From the NCBI GenBank assembly GCA_030323885.1, contig CM059187.1:135945239-136009238 (forward strand): a DNA stretch of 64,000 bases, in the 5' to 3' direction. The position numbers were made by a program, and so were the translations under genes. The notes beneath the pieces are model-generated. The model saw only the letters and a list, made by a program, of their open reading frames with translations, made no database searches and had not been told where the DNA came from. Within the stretch, counting starts at the first letter, position 1; the number at the start of each line of letters is the position of its first letter. This DNA is from Branchipolynoe longqiensis. Its lineage: Eukaryota; Annelida; Polychaeta; Phyllodocida; Polynoidae. Of the stretch, positions 21,961 through 50,160 are shown piece by piece.

Positions 21961-22236
21961 CTGAAGTGCACTACCCTCCCCCTCAGCAGTTCCCGACTGT
22001 ATCACTCTGACCCTAACAGGTCGACTGGTGGCGCCTCCTATGTGTGGTTACCTCGATAACTATTCATCCAATCCTGTACCAGTCTCTTTGATATATATAT
22101 GTATATATGATGTATAATAAATTATACGGGTATAATTACACAGAGGGAAATACATGTTTGCTATACATATAATATATATCCTCTATATGGAGTCCCCACA
22201 TTTCTAAATTATACCATAAATAAACCCACTAAGAAT
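21961..22236. other. spacer with GGTGGCGCC-repeat remnant
   Basis: GGTGGCGCCTCC near 22028 and ATAATAAATTATACGGGTATAA near 22112 match the dispersed repeat listed at 3866. Otherwise AT-rich. Confidence 0.45.
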
Positions 22237-23030
22237 AGTTCAATTCAAACCATACTAAACAAGAAAAGATGGTAATTATAAATGTTCAATTCAAACCATA
22301 CTAAACAAGAAAAGATGGTAAATATAAATAAATGTTCAATTCAAACCATACTAAACAAGAAAATACGGTAAATATAAATATTCAATTCAACCATGCTAAA
22401 CCAGAAAAGACGGTAAATATAAATATTCAATTCAAACCATACTAAACAAGAAAAGACGGTAAATATAAATAAATGTTCAATTCAAACCATACTAAACAAG
22501 AAAATACGGTAAATATAAATATTCAATTCAACCATGCTAAACCAGAAAAGACGGTAAATATAAATATTCAATTCAAACCATACCAAACAAGAAAAGACGG
22601 TAAATATAAATAAATGTTCAATTCAAACCATACTAAACAAGAAAATACGGTAAATATAAATATTCAATTCAACCATGCTAAACCAGAAAAGACGGTAAAT
22701 ATAAATAAATGTTCAATTCAAACCATACTAAACAAGAAAAGACGGTAAATATAAATAAATGTTCAATTCAAACCATACTAAACAAGAAAATACGGTAAAT
22801 ATAAATATTCAATTCAACCATGCTAAACCAGAAAAGACGGTAAATATAAATATTCAATTCAAACCATACCAAACAAGAAAAGATGGTAAATATAAATAAA
22901 TGTTCAATTCAAACCATACTAAACAAGAAAATACGGTAAATATAAATATTCAATTCAACCATGCTAAACCAGAAAAGACGGTAAATATAAATATTCAATT
23001 CAAACCATACTAAACAAGAAAAGACAGTGA
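22237..23030. repeat. satellite array with higher-order structure
   Basis: Seventeen units of 45-50 bp, all starting TTCAATTCAA. Three unit types alternate: about 50 bp (ending AAATAAATG), about 46 bp (AAAATACGG) and about 45 bp (CCATGCTAAACCAG), giving a roughly 141-bp trimer repeated about five times with one variant register. Not CRISPR: there are no unique spacers. Confidence 0.95.
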
Positions 23031-26246: not shown

Positions 26247-27267
26247 CGCCTGTCTGGACATGTTCTTGCGAGACCTCTATTTGCTCCCCGAGAGAGTGCC
26301 GCTGGTAATTTTAACTTTTGCAGGCAGCTTTCACGAAATGTACAACCGCACAAATATACAGTCCAGACAGAGCGCTGACCAATTCAATGTCACACACTTC
26401 AGAGCGAAGACCAAGACTACTCGGATACTGGTGAGAGAGAGATGCTATTCGCAGATGACAGTGCACTGGTTGCCCACTCTGCTGAAGAGATCCAGAAAAT
26501 AGTGGGCGCTTTCTCAGATGCGTCAAAGAAGTTCGGCCTGAAGATTAACATCAAGAAGGCGGAGATTCTGTACCAACCCAACTCTACAAGAACCCGAGAG
26601 GAGGATATCATGGTTGACGGAAACAAGCTGAACTCTGTTCCGGAATTCACTTACCTCGGAAGCACTATATCGAGTGATGGACGCATTGATGCTGAAATAC
26701 AGAGGAGGATGGCCAAGGCTAGCACATCTTTCGGCCGACTACGCCAGAGACTCTGGAACAACCACCATGTGTCCATGCGGATCAAAGCCAAGATCTACCG
26801 TGCAATCGTGCTATCCACCCTACAATATGGAGCCGAGGCCTGGACAGTGTACAGACAACAGGTGGAAATGCTGCATGCCTTCATGATGCGACATCTGCGT
26901 TCGATCATGAGGCTAACCTGGAAGGACAAAGTGACAAATAAGGAAATACTCGAACGGACAGTGCTGCCCTCTAAGGAAGATCTTCTGATAAAAAAGAATC
27001 TCCAGTGGACTGGACACTTCATGAGGATGTCATCAGATAGGCTACGAAAGCAGATCCTCTACTCTGAACTGTCTTCTGGTTACAGAAAGAGTGGTCGCCC
27101 TCATCCCGGTTCAAGGATACCATCAAGAGAAACCTGAAGCTGAGAGACATTAAGACCGACTCATTGATATCACTCTCACAGCAGAGAGCTAAATGGGGAG
27201 CGACAGTCAAGTAATGAAAGCAGTCTTTGTTGCATCATGACCGACAGCATGATGATGATGATGATGA

Positions 27268-35436: not shown

Positions 35437-35469
35437 TGTCATGGGGGTGATGAAAATGGGAAATACTCC

Positions 35470-35539
35470 GCCTAGAGCGGGACTCGAACCCACATCTCTT
35501 TGCATCCGGCCAGTGTGCTAACCATTACACCACCTAGGC
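35470..35539 (-). other. tRNA-like module in distal terminal repeat
   Basis: Minus strand begins GCCTAGGTGGTGTAATGG (acceptor strand and A box) and includes GGGTTCGAGTCCC (B box). The acceptor stem closes. The T-stem is GTGGG against CCCGC, with one G-T wobble. It is about two bases short in the anticodon arm. Probably not a functional tRNA. Confidence 0.7.
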
Positions 35540-35788
35540 TCCCTGATATCAATACACTCCCCACGCCTACCTGTCTATGTGGTTACTTGCCTGAGAGGTC
35601 AGTGCAGACCACTACACTCGTCCCCCTGGAATTGTAAGTCTTGTAATGCTTACAATTACATACATACAGGCAATGCACTAACACATACATACACAGGGTA
35701 GGTTCAACAACCATACAGCGCAAAGCTTGTACAGGATCCTGATCACGGCAACCAGTGTCATGGGGGGTGATGAAATGGGAAATACTGC

Positions 35789-35863
35789 GCCATAGAGCGG
35801 GACTCGAACCCGCCCATCTCTTTGCATTCCGGGCCAGTGTGCTAACCATTACACCACCTAGGC
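35789..35863 (-). other. tRNA-like module in proximal terminal repeat
   Basis: Same module as 35470-35539 but with a fully paired T-stem (GCGGG against CCCGC) and small insertions near the acceptor 3' side. A and B boxes are intact in the minus-strand sense, the same sense as the element. Confidence 0.7.
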
Positions 35864-35940
35864 TCCCTGATATCAATACACTCCCCACACCTACCTGTCT
35901 ATGTGGTTACTTGCCTGAGAGGTCAGTGCAGACCACTACA

Positions 35941-36181
35941 CTATATATATGTGCTATATAATTTATTATGTGGATATAAATAACGGCAGCCCCTGTTTCT
36001 CTCTAACCACCCTAACTTCATGTTATTCACTGCGGAGCGGGCATTCTCTCCTCCCCCGCCTCCTATACCCGTGAGCCAACTGTCACTCTGCTCACTTTCA
36101 AAATTGTTATGTATTGTGTTATGCATAATGCATTGTGCGAGTATGAAGGCACGGAATGGAATTATATGTTATTATATTATA
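35941..36181. repeat. AT-rich, GGTGGCGCC-repeat remnant
   Basis: ATGCATAATGCATTGTGCGAG and GTATGAAGG near 36122 match one half of the dispersed repeat. The other half (ACCGGTGGCGCCAC) lies at 36388, beyond an inserted MITE. Confidence 0.45.
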
Positions 36182-36342
36182 CAGTCAAACCTCCCTAACC
36201 GACCACCTCCAGAGCTTGAGTACTCCCCTATATCAATCGCGTTTGCGTCCCAACGATACCATTGTAGGATACGGACCACCTCCCTAAATGGACCATTTAA
36301 AGTCGGTTCCATGGTCAGTCGATTTAGAGAGGTTTTGCTCTA
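36182..36342. mobile_element. pogo/Tigger-like MITE, inverted copy
   Basis: CAGTCAAACCTCCCTAACCG at the left after TA, and GATTTAGAGAGGTTTTGCTC at the right. The interior is in the opposite orientation to 4144-4343. It splits the surrounding repeat. Confidence 0.75.
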
Positions 36343-37331
36343 TGTTATTATTCTGTACTATGCCTCATTGGCTCTACCCATGTGACCGGTGGCGCCACAA
36401 CTGGACGGACGCACCACATTGTCAGTCGCACTGGAGGCTTTTTTACTTTTTTTTAGGTAAGAGCAAATATTCCTTTGCCAGAGAATATATTTACTCATCC
36501 AACTATTATTGTCTTGTGTTCCTTCTGTACTGCAGCTGCTCTTCATATATATATATATATATATATATATACCTGCCATGACTGGATATTTTGTTGAATG
36601 TGTAAACTGTGTTTGTTTTCATTTGATTGATCCACCCACTCTACCACATTCTGTATCAGGACAATTGTTAGTCTAGATTCTGAGTTGTCTGTTTGTTGAA
36701 GACAAATTATTGTGTATATAATACATATGATATATGTAACATATATATAATAGTAATACATATAATATAGATATATACATTACATATATTATATATTACA
36801 TAGAATGTATGGAAGGCATATAATACATAGGATATATACACATAATGATATATATATATATACATATATGTATACTTACTCCACGATACTGAAGATAGAT
36901 AAGGAAAGTTATTAGCCATACTGAAAAATAAAAATAATTCTGGGGTGACTTAACATTTTTTTTTTTTATTGATGCTGTATTTATACTGTCCATAGCATGT
37001 AAGCCCAGGTACCTAGGCTTGTTTTCAATGCTGGCCAGCTGTAGTTTTGGTGTTGTCTTACCAAGCAGTAGCTGCTGATAAGTTATTTGATTGTTAGGTG
37101 TAGATGGGCAAAGCTACAACACTGGTGCACTTAGTGTACAATTAGTGTGCACAAGATACATATTGCCGAAACATGGATGTGATACTATTAATAAGTAAAG
37201 TCAATAGTTACACATACACTAAATATAAATATATCTACAGTTATTTATTTATATTTCTATAACAATCTGAGAATGAGGTGCAGTGAGGTTCTGGCCTTGC
37301 AGGTGCCAATCGGTAGGCATAGCCCATAATC
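36343..37331. other. AT-rich spacer with TA runs
   Basis: TA run near 36545-36570 and irregular TA/ATAC at 36715-36870. No gene recognised. Short ORFs are Ile/Tyr-rich artefacts. Confidence 0.5.
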
Positions 37332-42230: not shown

Positions 42231-42880
42231 GCTACTACTAGTACTACAAACTGCCCGCCGTGAGAGCAGCGCCAAACGGCCGACTGGCGGTCAGGGCGTT
42301 CACTATCGGCGGAAAGCTTATATTTGGGGGATTCGGTGCAAATGTGCAATATAGACAGGAGTGATCAACTGTCACATAATGTAGCGGATTTGCACATTCC
42401 GTGAGCTCAAAGTGGGATAAAGTCAAACAAATAAATCACACTTTAAAGCGGATATGTCAACGTGCTCTCTTCGTAAATACATTAAAGGCGATACCAATAC
42501 ACATGTCTATATTATTTTAAAGATACATATACATAGTATTTTTTAGAAATATATAGGTGTTTATCCATATTTAATATATTGATAAATAGACATATTTATA
42601 TAATATATAATATATAAAATGTATATAATATAAATAATATATATAATATATATAATACATACAATATATATAATTGTTATAAATATAGGTGTTTAGCTAT
42701 ATAAAATAAATAGACAAATACACATATTGATATAATACATATGATATGTATAATACATATGATATATATAATACAAATGATATATATAATATATATAATA
42801 TATATAATATATGTATTATATATTATATAATATATATAATATATACATAATATATATCATATATACATAATATACAATAC
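42231..42880. other. complex then TA/ATA-rich DNA
   Basis: 42231-42480 is complex with CTGTCACATAATG and TCAAACAAATAAATC motifs. After that ATATA repeats dominate up to the LTR-like element. Confidence 0.45.
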
Positions 42881-43202
42881 TGTCATGGGGGTGATGAAAA
42901 TGGGAAATATTGTGCCTAGAGTGGGACTCGAACCCACATGCACTAACACATACATACACAGGGTAGGTTCAACAACCATACAGCGCAAAGCTTGTACAGG
43001 ATCCTGATCACGGCAACCAGTGTCATGGGGGTGATGAAAATGGGAAATATTGTGCCTAGAGTGGGACTCAAACCCACATCTCTTTGCATTCCGGGCCAGT
43101 GTGCTAACCATTACACCACCTAGGCTCCCTGATATCAACACACTCCCCACGCCTACCTGTCTATGTGGTTACTTGCCTGAGAGGTCAGTGCATACCACTA
43201 CA
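42881..43202 (-). mobile_element. miniature LTR-like element, second copy with deletion
   Basis: Left terminal repeat is cut short (42881-42939). The internal part (42940-43020) retains the PBS-like end, and a complete terminal repeat spans 43021-43202. Outer ends are the same as at 35437-35940. ACAATAC occurs on both sides (42874-42880, 43200-43206), compatible with a 5-bp duplication AATAC, although it overlaps the repeat end by one base. Confidence 0.62.
43054..43125 (-). other. tRNA-like module, best preserved copy
   Basis: 72 nt that fold by standard tRNA spacing: acceptor GCCTAGG/TCTAGGC (one G-T), D-stem GTGT/GCAC, T-stem GTGGG/CCCAC with a 7-nt loop. The anticodon stem CTGGC/GCAAA is mispaired at two positions and position 33 is C, not T, so it is unlikely to be a decoding tRNA. 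A box TGGTGTAATGG is intact. The B box has one change (GGTTTGAGTCC). Confidence 0.7.
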
Positions 43203-43589
43203 ATACTATATATACTATATATAATATATACATAATATATATATATACTATATAATATATATATATTTGCATAAAGAATTTGACTGCATCTTATGAACGG
43301 GCATTCTGTAGTAGTATTCCTATAAAGGCTTTTCAAAGGAATAAATTATTGCAATTCATCTGCCAATGTCTGTCGTCAGCAAGAACTGGACACAAACAAG
43401 TAATATTGCTAGGGCTGAACGCACTGGTGTTGAATTGAAGAAGACAGATATTCCACTGTTAACGTGAGTAATTGGGTCGTGGAGGGAGTTCTGGTCCAAC
43501 GTGGCTAATATCGCTCTGGCTTGCCTAAACCGGAAGTACCATCAGCTAAATGGAACTAGTACCGTTAGAACTGAATGTCACACCTCTTT
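43203..43589. other. TA-rich then complex spacer
   Basis: No gene recognised. Confidence 0.4.
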
Positions 43590-48973: not shown

Positions 48974-49013
48974 ATATTGTTCTACTACTGTGATGTGTGT
49001 GTGTATATATAAT
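48855..49013. repeat. TA microsatellites before assembly gap
   Basis: Two long TA runs (about 48855-48905 and 48931-48967). Confidence 0.95.
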
Positions 49014-49512
49014 NNNNNNNNNNNNNNNNNNNNNNNNNNNNNNNNNNNNNNNNNNNNNNNNNNNNNNNNNNNNNNNNNNNNNNNNNNNNNNNNNNNNNNN
49101 NNNNNNNNNNNNNNNNNNNNNNNNNNNNNNNNNNNNNNNNNNNNNNNNNNNNNNNNNNNNNNNNNNNNNNNNNNNNNNNNNNNNNNNNNNNNNNNNNNNN
49201 NNNNNNNNNNNNNNNNNNNNNNNNNNNNNNNNNNNNNNNNNNNNNNNNNNNNNNNNNNNNNNNNNNNNNNNNNNNNNNNNNNNNNNNNNNNNNNNNNNNN
49301 NNNNNNNNNNNNNNNNNNNNNNNNNNNNNNNNNNNNNNNNNNNNNNNNNNNNNNNNNNNNNNNNNNNNNNNNNNNNNNNNNNNNNNNNNNNNNNNNNNNN
49401 NNNNNNNNNNNNNNNNNNNNNNNNNNNNNNNNNNNNNNNNNNNNNNNNNNNNNNNNNNNNNNNNNNNNNNNNNNNNNNNNNNNNNNNNNNNNNNNNNNNN
49501 NNNNNNNNNNNN
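49014..49512. other. assembly gap (499 N)
   Basis: Run of N. Sequence unknown. Frames crossing it are meaningless. Confidence 1.
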
Positions 49513-50160
49513 AGAGAAAGAAAGAGAAAGGGAAAGCCTTCTGCTGGTGGTAGACCGATCCCCAGCTTTAGAAAAACGGGATCTATGCCATGTCCGTCCG
49601 CGCATAGAGAGACAGAGCGTCGGAGAGAGACAGAGAGACCGGCAGACAGACCAAACGATATACATGCGGATAGACAGAAAGCAGAGATAAAGGTGGAGAG
49701 AGATATAGGCAGGAAGGCAGAAATAGAGCCACAGAGAGAGAAATGGCAGACATAAATAACACATATAGTGGGATAGTCAAACTGCAGGCGAATAGACAGA
49801 GCAGAGAAAGGGGAACGAGGCATGCAAGCAGGGAGACAGATAGCAAACCGCAGATACAGGGGGAGAAAGAATGAAAGTGGACAGATAGAGGGGCAGGCAT
49901 GCGGTAAACAGAATCAAACAGACAGAGAGAGGAGAGAGAGGAGAGATGTACAGATGGCGAAAGAGAGAGGGCAGAGACACACAGACAGCGACAGAAAGAG
50001 GAGAGAGACATACAGACAGTGACCGAGAGAGGAGAGAGACACACATTCAGCGACATAGATAGAAGAGAGACACACAGACAGTGACAGAGAGAGGTGAGGG
50101 ACAGTGACAGTGAGAGGGGAGAGGCACAGACAGCGACACAGAGAGGAGATATATATACAG
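49513..50160. repeat. GA/CA-rich minisatellite
   Basis: AGAGAAAGA at the gap edge, then AGACAGA-rich sequence. Regular units near 49920-50150 read GAGAGACACACAGACAGTGACA with variants. Confidence 0.85.

What the first reader, a model, noticed from the sequence alone, without database searches (positions are those of the whole stretch)
35437..35940. Miniature LTR-like element whose terminal repeats carry a tRNA-like (Pol III-type) module
Seen: two ~180-bp direct repeats (TGT...ACA) flank 139 bp. On the minus strand a TGG-initial PBS-like site starts one base after the 5' repeat and a purine run AGGGGGACGAG abuts the 3' repeat. Each repeat holds an A-box/B-box tRNA-like cloverleaf in the same sense. 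Known: plant Cassandra TRIMs carry 5S rRNA in their LTRs. Inference: this would be an animal parallel using a tRNA-like RNA, perhaps Pol III transcribed. I do not know of a described match, but could not search.
Basis: partly seen in the sequence, partly recalled or inferred. Interest (0 to 1): 0.82.

Follow-up and report, generated by a model that had tools for sequence, protein, structure and literature searches.

The report
Helenus-type mini-retrotransposon with tRNA-like LTRs
This is a real 504-base jumping element whose end repeats each carry a tRNA-like promoter, with thousands of copies in its genome; its kind was described in 2024, but its tandem chains and a satellite-like repeat grown from its LTR are worth following up.

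Summary
In detail: window 35437-35940 is a complete terminal-repeat retrotransposon in miniature (TRIM), read on the minus strand: LTR (185 bp), tRNA-type PBS, 139-bp core, purine tract, LTR (180 bp). Each LTR holds a tRNA-like module with A and B boxes (Rfam tRNA 27.1 and 45.0 bits). A second, internally deleted copy lies at 42881-43202. The genome has 4,788 exact PBS/LTR junctions and 22,298 exact LTR ends; perfect 4-bp target duplications flank 28 of 39 fetched copies (shuffled mean 1.65). The PBS is a slightly drifted tRNA-His site; a minority subfamily matches this genome's own tRNA-His over 18 of 18 bases.

Not new as a kind: Kojima (2024, PMC10886601) described it as Helenus. So: new member of a known kind; Pol III transcription remains inferred.

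Two extensions deserve notice. Duplication-bounded concatemers, (LTR-core)n-LTR with n up to 4, can mix cores of different subfamilies, which favours joining at the cDNA stage. And the first 99 bp of the LTR (5' part plus A box) has become a tandem repeat of up to 47 units before one LTR; two of eight such loci tested keep a perfect 4-bp duplication.

The parts
35756..35940 (-). 5' LTR in sense orientation, 185 bp, TGTAGTG...CATGACA
35437..35616 (-). 3' LTR in sense orientation, 180 bp
35617..35755 (-). core, 139 bp; no ORF of 110 aa or more lies within the element
35736..35754 (-). primer-binding site TGGTTGCCGTGATCAGGAT, tRNA-His type with a 1-base insertion and one C-to-T change relative to the genome's own tRNA-His
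35617..35627 (-). polypurine tract AGGGGGACGAG; 70 of 81 full cores end TACAATTCCAGGGGGACGAG
35789..35863 (-). tRNA-like module in 5' LTR (27.1 bits, below Rfam gathering; 2-base insertion near the B box)
35469..35539 (-). tRNA-like module in 3' LTR (Rfam RF00005, 45.0 bits)
35842..35856 (-). A-box region of 5' LTR
35800..35810 (-). B box of 5' LTR
35518..35532 (-). A-box region of 3' LTR
35480..35490 (-). B box of 3' LTR
35452..35460 (-). CCCATTTTC, the usual only TTTT of the LTR family, possible Pol III terminator (the 5' LTR of this copy has TTT at 35772-35779)
42881..43202 (-). second copy in the window, with an internal deletion joining the core to the 3' LTR; perfect 4-bp duplication ATAC at 42877-42880 and 43203-43206; tRNA-like module 43053-43125, 48.5 bits

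Best explanation
[quoted passage not shown] Inferred life cycle: Pol III, recruited by the tRNA-like module in the 5' LTR, makes an RNA that reads through a weak TTTT into the 3' LTR; tRNA-His primes reverse transcription at the PBS; the purine tract primes the second strand; the enzymes of an unidentified autonomous LTR retrotransposon (Gypsy by analogy) insert the cDNA with a 4-bp duplication, mostly in AT-rich DNA. Shown here: anatomy, constant ends, 4-bp duplications, solo LTRs, PBS match to the genome's own tRNA-His in a subfamily, low divergence of the boxes. Inferred: Pol III use, the partner, the order of steps.
For: Two LTRs, PBS, PPT. tRNA covariance hits. 28 of 39 top copies have perfect 4-bp duplications against a shuffled mean of 1.65, maximum 9 in 10,000; 14 of 20 in the LTR-query set; 8 of 20 in a set not picked by overall identity. 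Solo LTRs with perfect duplications L065 and L091. 4,788 and 22,298 exact k-mer copies, reversed-pattern control 0. The PBS TGGTGCCGTGACCAGGAT of a minority subfamily (9 of 81 full cores) complements tRNA-His plus CCA over 18 of 18 in two of three tRNA-His loci examined, of 16 found; a human tRNA-His reverse primer agrees over the first 12 bases. A box 0.66% and B box 0.57% mean divergence, against 1.72% for the 5' part and 3.64% for the 3' part, 127 LTRs. No AATAAA, ATTAAA, TATAAA or TATATA in the majority letters of the LTR. Flanks (50 bp each side) average 68% A+T; the window averages 53%.
Against: No transcription data. A TTTT follows the module in both LTRs of most copies, so Pol III could stop in the 5' LTR and make only a short RNA. 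The majority PBS (48 of 81 full cores) carries a one-base insertion against tRNA-His. Box conservation is modest (rank 4 of 182 circular shifts), and a stretch just upstream is equally conserved. The LTRs compared come from top-scoring, young copies. No partner was found: the 10 examined of 21 loci with this PBS not followed by the usual LTR letters are 9 copies of this TRIM with changed LTR ends and one that lacks that LTR. Some perfect duplications lie in TA runs, where matches come easily.
Confidence: 0.92

Rival explanations
1. An ordinary TRIM transcribed by Pol II, whose LTR merely inherited a dead tRNA-derived SINE.
For: No expression data; the window 5' module is decayed (27.1 bits); the TTTT would impede Pol III.
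Against: Both boxes diverge less than the rest of the LTR over 127 LTRs, another copy scores 48.5 bits, and no TATA or poly(A) signal was found by simple motif search.
Confidence: 0.2
2. A satellite DNA unit with period about 321 bp that only imitates a TRIM.
For: 13 of 39 top loci show three or more LTR matches, and 31 of 36 spacings between neighbouring LTR ends in clusters lie at 300-340 bp, though a single element gives that spacing too.
Against: 65 of 80 junction clusters in the listed sample have one junction, ends are fixed, and both singles and arrays are bounded by 4-bp duplications.
Confidence: 0.02
3. A dimeric tRNA SINE moved by a LINE.
For: tRNA-derived module, short, no long ORF.
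Against: Fixed 4-bp duplications, TG...CA ends, PBS and PPT, solo LTRs; a LINE mechanism predicts variable, longer duplications and a 3' tail (general knowledge).
Confidence: 0.01
4. On the concatemers: they arise after insertion by unequal crossing over between sister copies, with later gene conversion.
For: Solo LTRs, the reciprocal product, exist; several arrays have near-identical cores (L009, L012, L031, L071, L072, L076).
Against: L015, L069 and L074 keep perfect outer duplications yet carry cores of different subfamilies, some identical to cores elsewhere. Gene conversion could mimic this.
Confidence: 0.4

Closest known systems
Helenus (TRIMp3), Kojima 2024, PMC10886601
   Same: TRIM of 311-1263 bp with tRNA-derived A and B boxes in the LTR, PBS, PPT, 4-bp duplications in animals, tRNA-His among the primers of bivalve families, tandem arrays noted for LTR-11_DR
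   Different: Consensus sequences of the 2024 paper could not be compared here; a 99-bp LTR-derived repeat and mixed-core concatemers are not mentioned in the sections read
Cassandra (plants), PMC7215508, passages seen
   Same: Small-RNA gene in the LTR, long tandem arrays; template switching and crossing over both proposed
   Different: 5S rRNA rather than tRNA
biv-TRIM (bivalves), PMC6934838
   Same: TRIM with solo repeats and tandem forms
   Different: TDR 202-218 bp, core 77-80 bp, no clear PBS; the parts read (first of five parts, and passages) mention no tRNA-like module in the repeats
tRNA-derived SINEs (general knowledge)
   Same: Possible source of the tRNA module, as Kojima proposes
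   Different: No LTR, PBS or PPT

Membership tests
Helenus | Short LTR element (311-1263 bp described), non-autonomous | tested here: met
   504 bp; no ORF of 110 aa or more lies within it
Helenus | tRNA-derived sequence with A and B boxes in the LTRs | tested here: met
Helenus | PBS just after the 5' LTR and PPT before the 3' LTR | tested here: met
Helenus | 4-bp target duplications (animal members) | tested here: met
   28 of 39, 14 of 20 and 8 of 20 perfect
Helenus | Sequence similarity to a listed Helenus family | not testable with these tools
   Repbase not held; look-ups in supplementary files are capped at 0
Helenus | Working Pol III promoter | not testable with these tools
   no expression data; Kojima also leaves it unproven
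Helenus | Autonomous Gypsy partner sharing the PBS | tested here: inconclusive
   10 of 21 loci examined, no partner
biv-TRIM | TDR 202-218 bp, core 77-80 bp | tested here: not met
   180-185 bp and 139 bp
Satellite DNA | Tandem array without element ends | tested here: not met
   65 of 80 listed junction clusters are single; copies end in 4-bp duplications
SINE | No LTRs; variable duplications, 3' tail | tested here: not met

The most novel reading that the evidence does not exclude
The element copies itself as concatemers: short RNAs of different subfamilies are joined during reverse transcription (or at the cDNA stage) and inserted as one (LTR-core)n-LTR unit. A self-insertion at TTAG, LTR positions 96-99, created a new LTR form whose 5' part plus A box (99 bp) expands like a satellite, up to 47 units, while still being inserted as an LTR with its own 4-bp duplication: a mobile, self-expanding satellite seed biased to chromosome ends.
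Probability: 0.35. Interest if true: 0.6.

Novelty: new member of a known kind. Interest (0 to 1): 0.4.

Why it matters
It independently confirms that small-RNA promoters live inside LTRs, with thousands of copies in one genome and a primer site that can be matched to the host's own tRNA-His gene. It warns that a tRNA finder calls many of these LTRs tRNA-Ser(GGA) genes. The mixed-core, duplication-bounded concatemers make an open point testable: whether tandem TRIMs form before or after integration. The 99-bp LTR-derived repeat shows several steps from one LTR to a long tandem array within one genome.

Tried and rejected
Satellite-only and SINE readings were rejected on duplications and fixed ends. 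biv-TRIM was rejected on dimensions. Priming by the LTR's own tRNA-like module was not tested here; Kojima found no complementarity in his families, and the PBS fits tRNA-His. A search for an autonomous partner through the shared PBS gave only TRIM copies in the 10 of 21 loci examined; a second pattern for the same purpose did not complete. The TTT/TTTT difference between first and later LTRs was not significant (TTT in 9 of 57 against 3 of 66, p 0.064; 4 LTRs without a readable run left out). A direct count of LTR ends followed by the core did not complete, so the solo fraction is known only from samples. Of three window ORFs sent to Pfam two gave nothing.

Full report
What is there. Two direct repeats, 35437-35616 and 35756-35940, 94% identical, flank a 139-bp core. 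Read on the minus strand this is LTR, one spacer base, PBS, core, purine tract, LTR. Each LTR holds a tRNA-like module: Rfam tRNA 45.0 bits at 35469-35539 and 27.1 bits, under the gathering score of 29, at 35789-35863. No ORF of 110 aa or more lies within the element. The two LTRs differ by 5.6%; 34 other pairs, from top-scoring loci, have a median of 1.1% and a range of 0-6.6%, so the window copy is among the older of these.

Second copy. 42881-43202 has the same ends, an internal deletion joining the core to the 3' LTR, a 48.5-bit tRNA-like module and a perfect 4-bp duplication ATAC. The duplication of the finding's own copy is imperfect, GTAT/CTAT, in an AT microsatellite.

Genome test. The window lies in an unnamed 1.85-Gb assembly of 1,914 contigs; contigs 1-18 are 48-189 Mb and sum to 1.76 Gb. 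The 504-bp query gave 2,066 first-look candidates, of which the best 40 were scored; 34 of 40 match from base 1 to 504. I fetched 39 of these, the window copy left out: 28 of 39 have perfect 4-bp duplications; re-pairing the flanks at random gives a mean of 1.65 and at most 9 in 10,000. Edges were placed by BLAST; rereading three loci, L016 was counted with its edge one base off in a TA run and is not perfect, L033 was missed and is perfect (GTAA), L020 is not perfect, so the total stays 28. The 11 misses include N runs and arrays cut by the fetched stretch. From 40 hits of an LTR-only query I fetched 20 regions: 14 of 20 perfect, including a solo LTR (L065, ATAG); four of the six misses ran off the stretch, and all four proved perfect when refetched. 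A sample not chosen by overall identity, though each needs an exact 24-base LTR end and no second exact end nearby, is the first 20 of 36 single LTR ends listed on contig 1: 9 full or nearly full elements, 3 damaged ones, 4 plain solo LTRs, 3 loci with a duplicated LTR start of about 99 bp and 1 fragment; 8 of 20 have perfect duplications, two of them in TA runs. Exact counts: 4,788 PBS/LTR junction 25-mers and 22,298 LTR-end 24-mers, 0 for the reversed patterns.

Primer. 48 of 81 full cores begin CTGGTTGCCGTGATCAGGAT; 9 of 81 begin CTGGTGCCGTGACCAGGAT. Sixteen tRNA-His pattern hits were found and three read: two end GGTTCGAATCCTGGTCACGGCA, the third has a changed acceptor stem. With CCA added the complement is TGGTGCCGTGACCAGGATTC, an 18 of 18 match to the minority form. 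The majority form, as in the window, has one inserted T and one C-to-T change. A human tRNA-His reverse primer in PMC12217144 (one passage seen) agrees over the first 12 bases.

Promoter. Over 127 LTRs the A box diverges 0.66% and the B box 0.57%, against 1.72% in the 5' part and 3.64% in the 3' part; the pair of boxes ranks 4 of 182 circular shifts, but a stretch just upstream is as conserved. The module spans LTR positions 78-150 and a TTTT starts at 163, present in 111 of 127 LTRs (12 have TTT, 4 no readable run). Upstream of it 1 of 127 LTRs has a TTTT, and 2 of 81 cores have one. Pol III transcription is thus plausible but unproven, and a full-length RNA would usually have to read through this TTTT once. 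ARAGORN calls many of these LTRs tRNA-Ser(GGA): 26 of the 27 tRNA genes that it reports in the window and nine loci.

Concatemers. 13 of 39 top loci have three or more LTR matches; in a few a match is a fragment outside the main chain. Nine loci were refetched wider: L069 and L073 are LTR x5, core x4; L071, L072 and L074 are LTR x4, core x3; all five have perfect outer duplications; L070 (five LTRs) and L075 do not show one, L076 borders an N run, L077 is not an array. Among the first 100 junctions listed on contig 1, 65 of 80 clusters (same strand, under 1,400 bp apart) have a single junction, 13 two, one four and one five. Cores within an array can differ: L069 holds two majority cores, one identical to cores of L030, L055 and L066, and a fourth 3% or more from any other; L074 holds cores identical to L050 and to L066 plus a third type; L015 holds a majority core and one close (1.5%) to L045. 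L041, L044 and L047 also mix, but one core in each has no close relative in the sample. L009, L012, L031, L071, L072 and L076 are uniform or nearly so. On average cores differ by 2.7% within arrays and 3.2% between loci. Mixed cores with an intact outer duplication are not expected from exchange within one insertion; they fit joining at the cDNA stage (template switching, or recombination of cDNA with a resident copy), with gene conversion as the main alternative. Kalendar and colleagues discuss template switching and crossing over for Cassandra arrays (PMC7215508, passages seen); yeast Ty1 cDNA is also found in arrays (PMC5295604, passages seen).

The 99-bp repeat. Some loci carry LTR positions 1-99 (5' part plus A box) directly repeated before a full or partial LTR: L099 has three units and a perfect duplication ACAG, L123 sixteen units and CATG, L122 forty-seven units without a perfect duplication, L084 one unit with 3 of 4. 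Of nine loci examined (L084, L099, L112, L113, L115, L117, L121, L122, L123) eight were tested for a duplication and two are perfect; in L112, L113, L117 and L121 the last LTR is decayed or cut and its right edge uncertain; L115 was not tested. The junction 19-mer occurs 230 times, control 0. L112 appears to carry the unit in both LTR positions. LTR positions 96-99 read TTAG, like the xTAG duplications seen at several insertions (ATAG, GTAG, CTAG), so a self-insertion there followed by loss of the rest is a simple origin (inference).

Comparison with the literature. Kojima 2024 (PMC10886601; abstract, methods, results, discussion, legends and tables read) defines Helenus as TRIMs with tRNA-like LTRs, with 4-bp duplications in animals and tRNA-His among bivalve primers, and notes tandem arrays of LTR-11_DR. 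The element meets the four defining features that I could test. A search for Helenus or TRIMp3 from 2023 on listed 18 papers: I opened Kojima's, a meeting report that cites it (PMC12859917, two passages) and a plant paper that means a butterfly (PMC13319329, one passage); the other 15 I judged by title only to be unrelated. For LTR-derived satellites of tRNA-bearing TRIMs one six-term search found nothing, which is weak evidence of absence; listings show TE-to-satellite cases in general (listings only). Hence: new member of a known kind, with two aspects that go somewhat beyond the sections read.

Noticed in passing
L123:1-3001, L122:1-7101, 230 junctions genome-wide: 99-bp tandem repeat made of LTR positions 1-99, up to 47 units before one LTR, in clusters that seem enriched near contig ends
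   Followed up: partly
window 43052-43125 and nine loci: ARAGORN reports tRNA-Ser(GGA) in many of these LTRs, a likely annotation artefact
   Followed up: partly
window 26379-27137: Reverse transcriptase fragment (RVT_1, 27 bits, just under the Pfam cut-off of 29.6)
   Followed up: no
window 36180-36345: By eye, an interspersed element with partly inverted ends (CAGTCAAACCTCCCTAACC ... AGAGAGGTTTTGCTCTA) in a TA-rich site, MITE-like
   Followed up: no
window 22234-23025: Tandem array with period about 141 bp, built of units of about 50 bp
   Followed up: no
L079, L080: tRNA-His genes followed by an encoded CCA; L080 has changes in the anticodon-arm and acceptor-arm letters
   Followed up: no
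window about 49013-49550: Run of N in the assembly, seen as X in the ORF list
   Followed up: no
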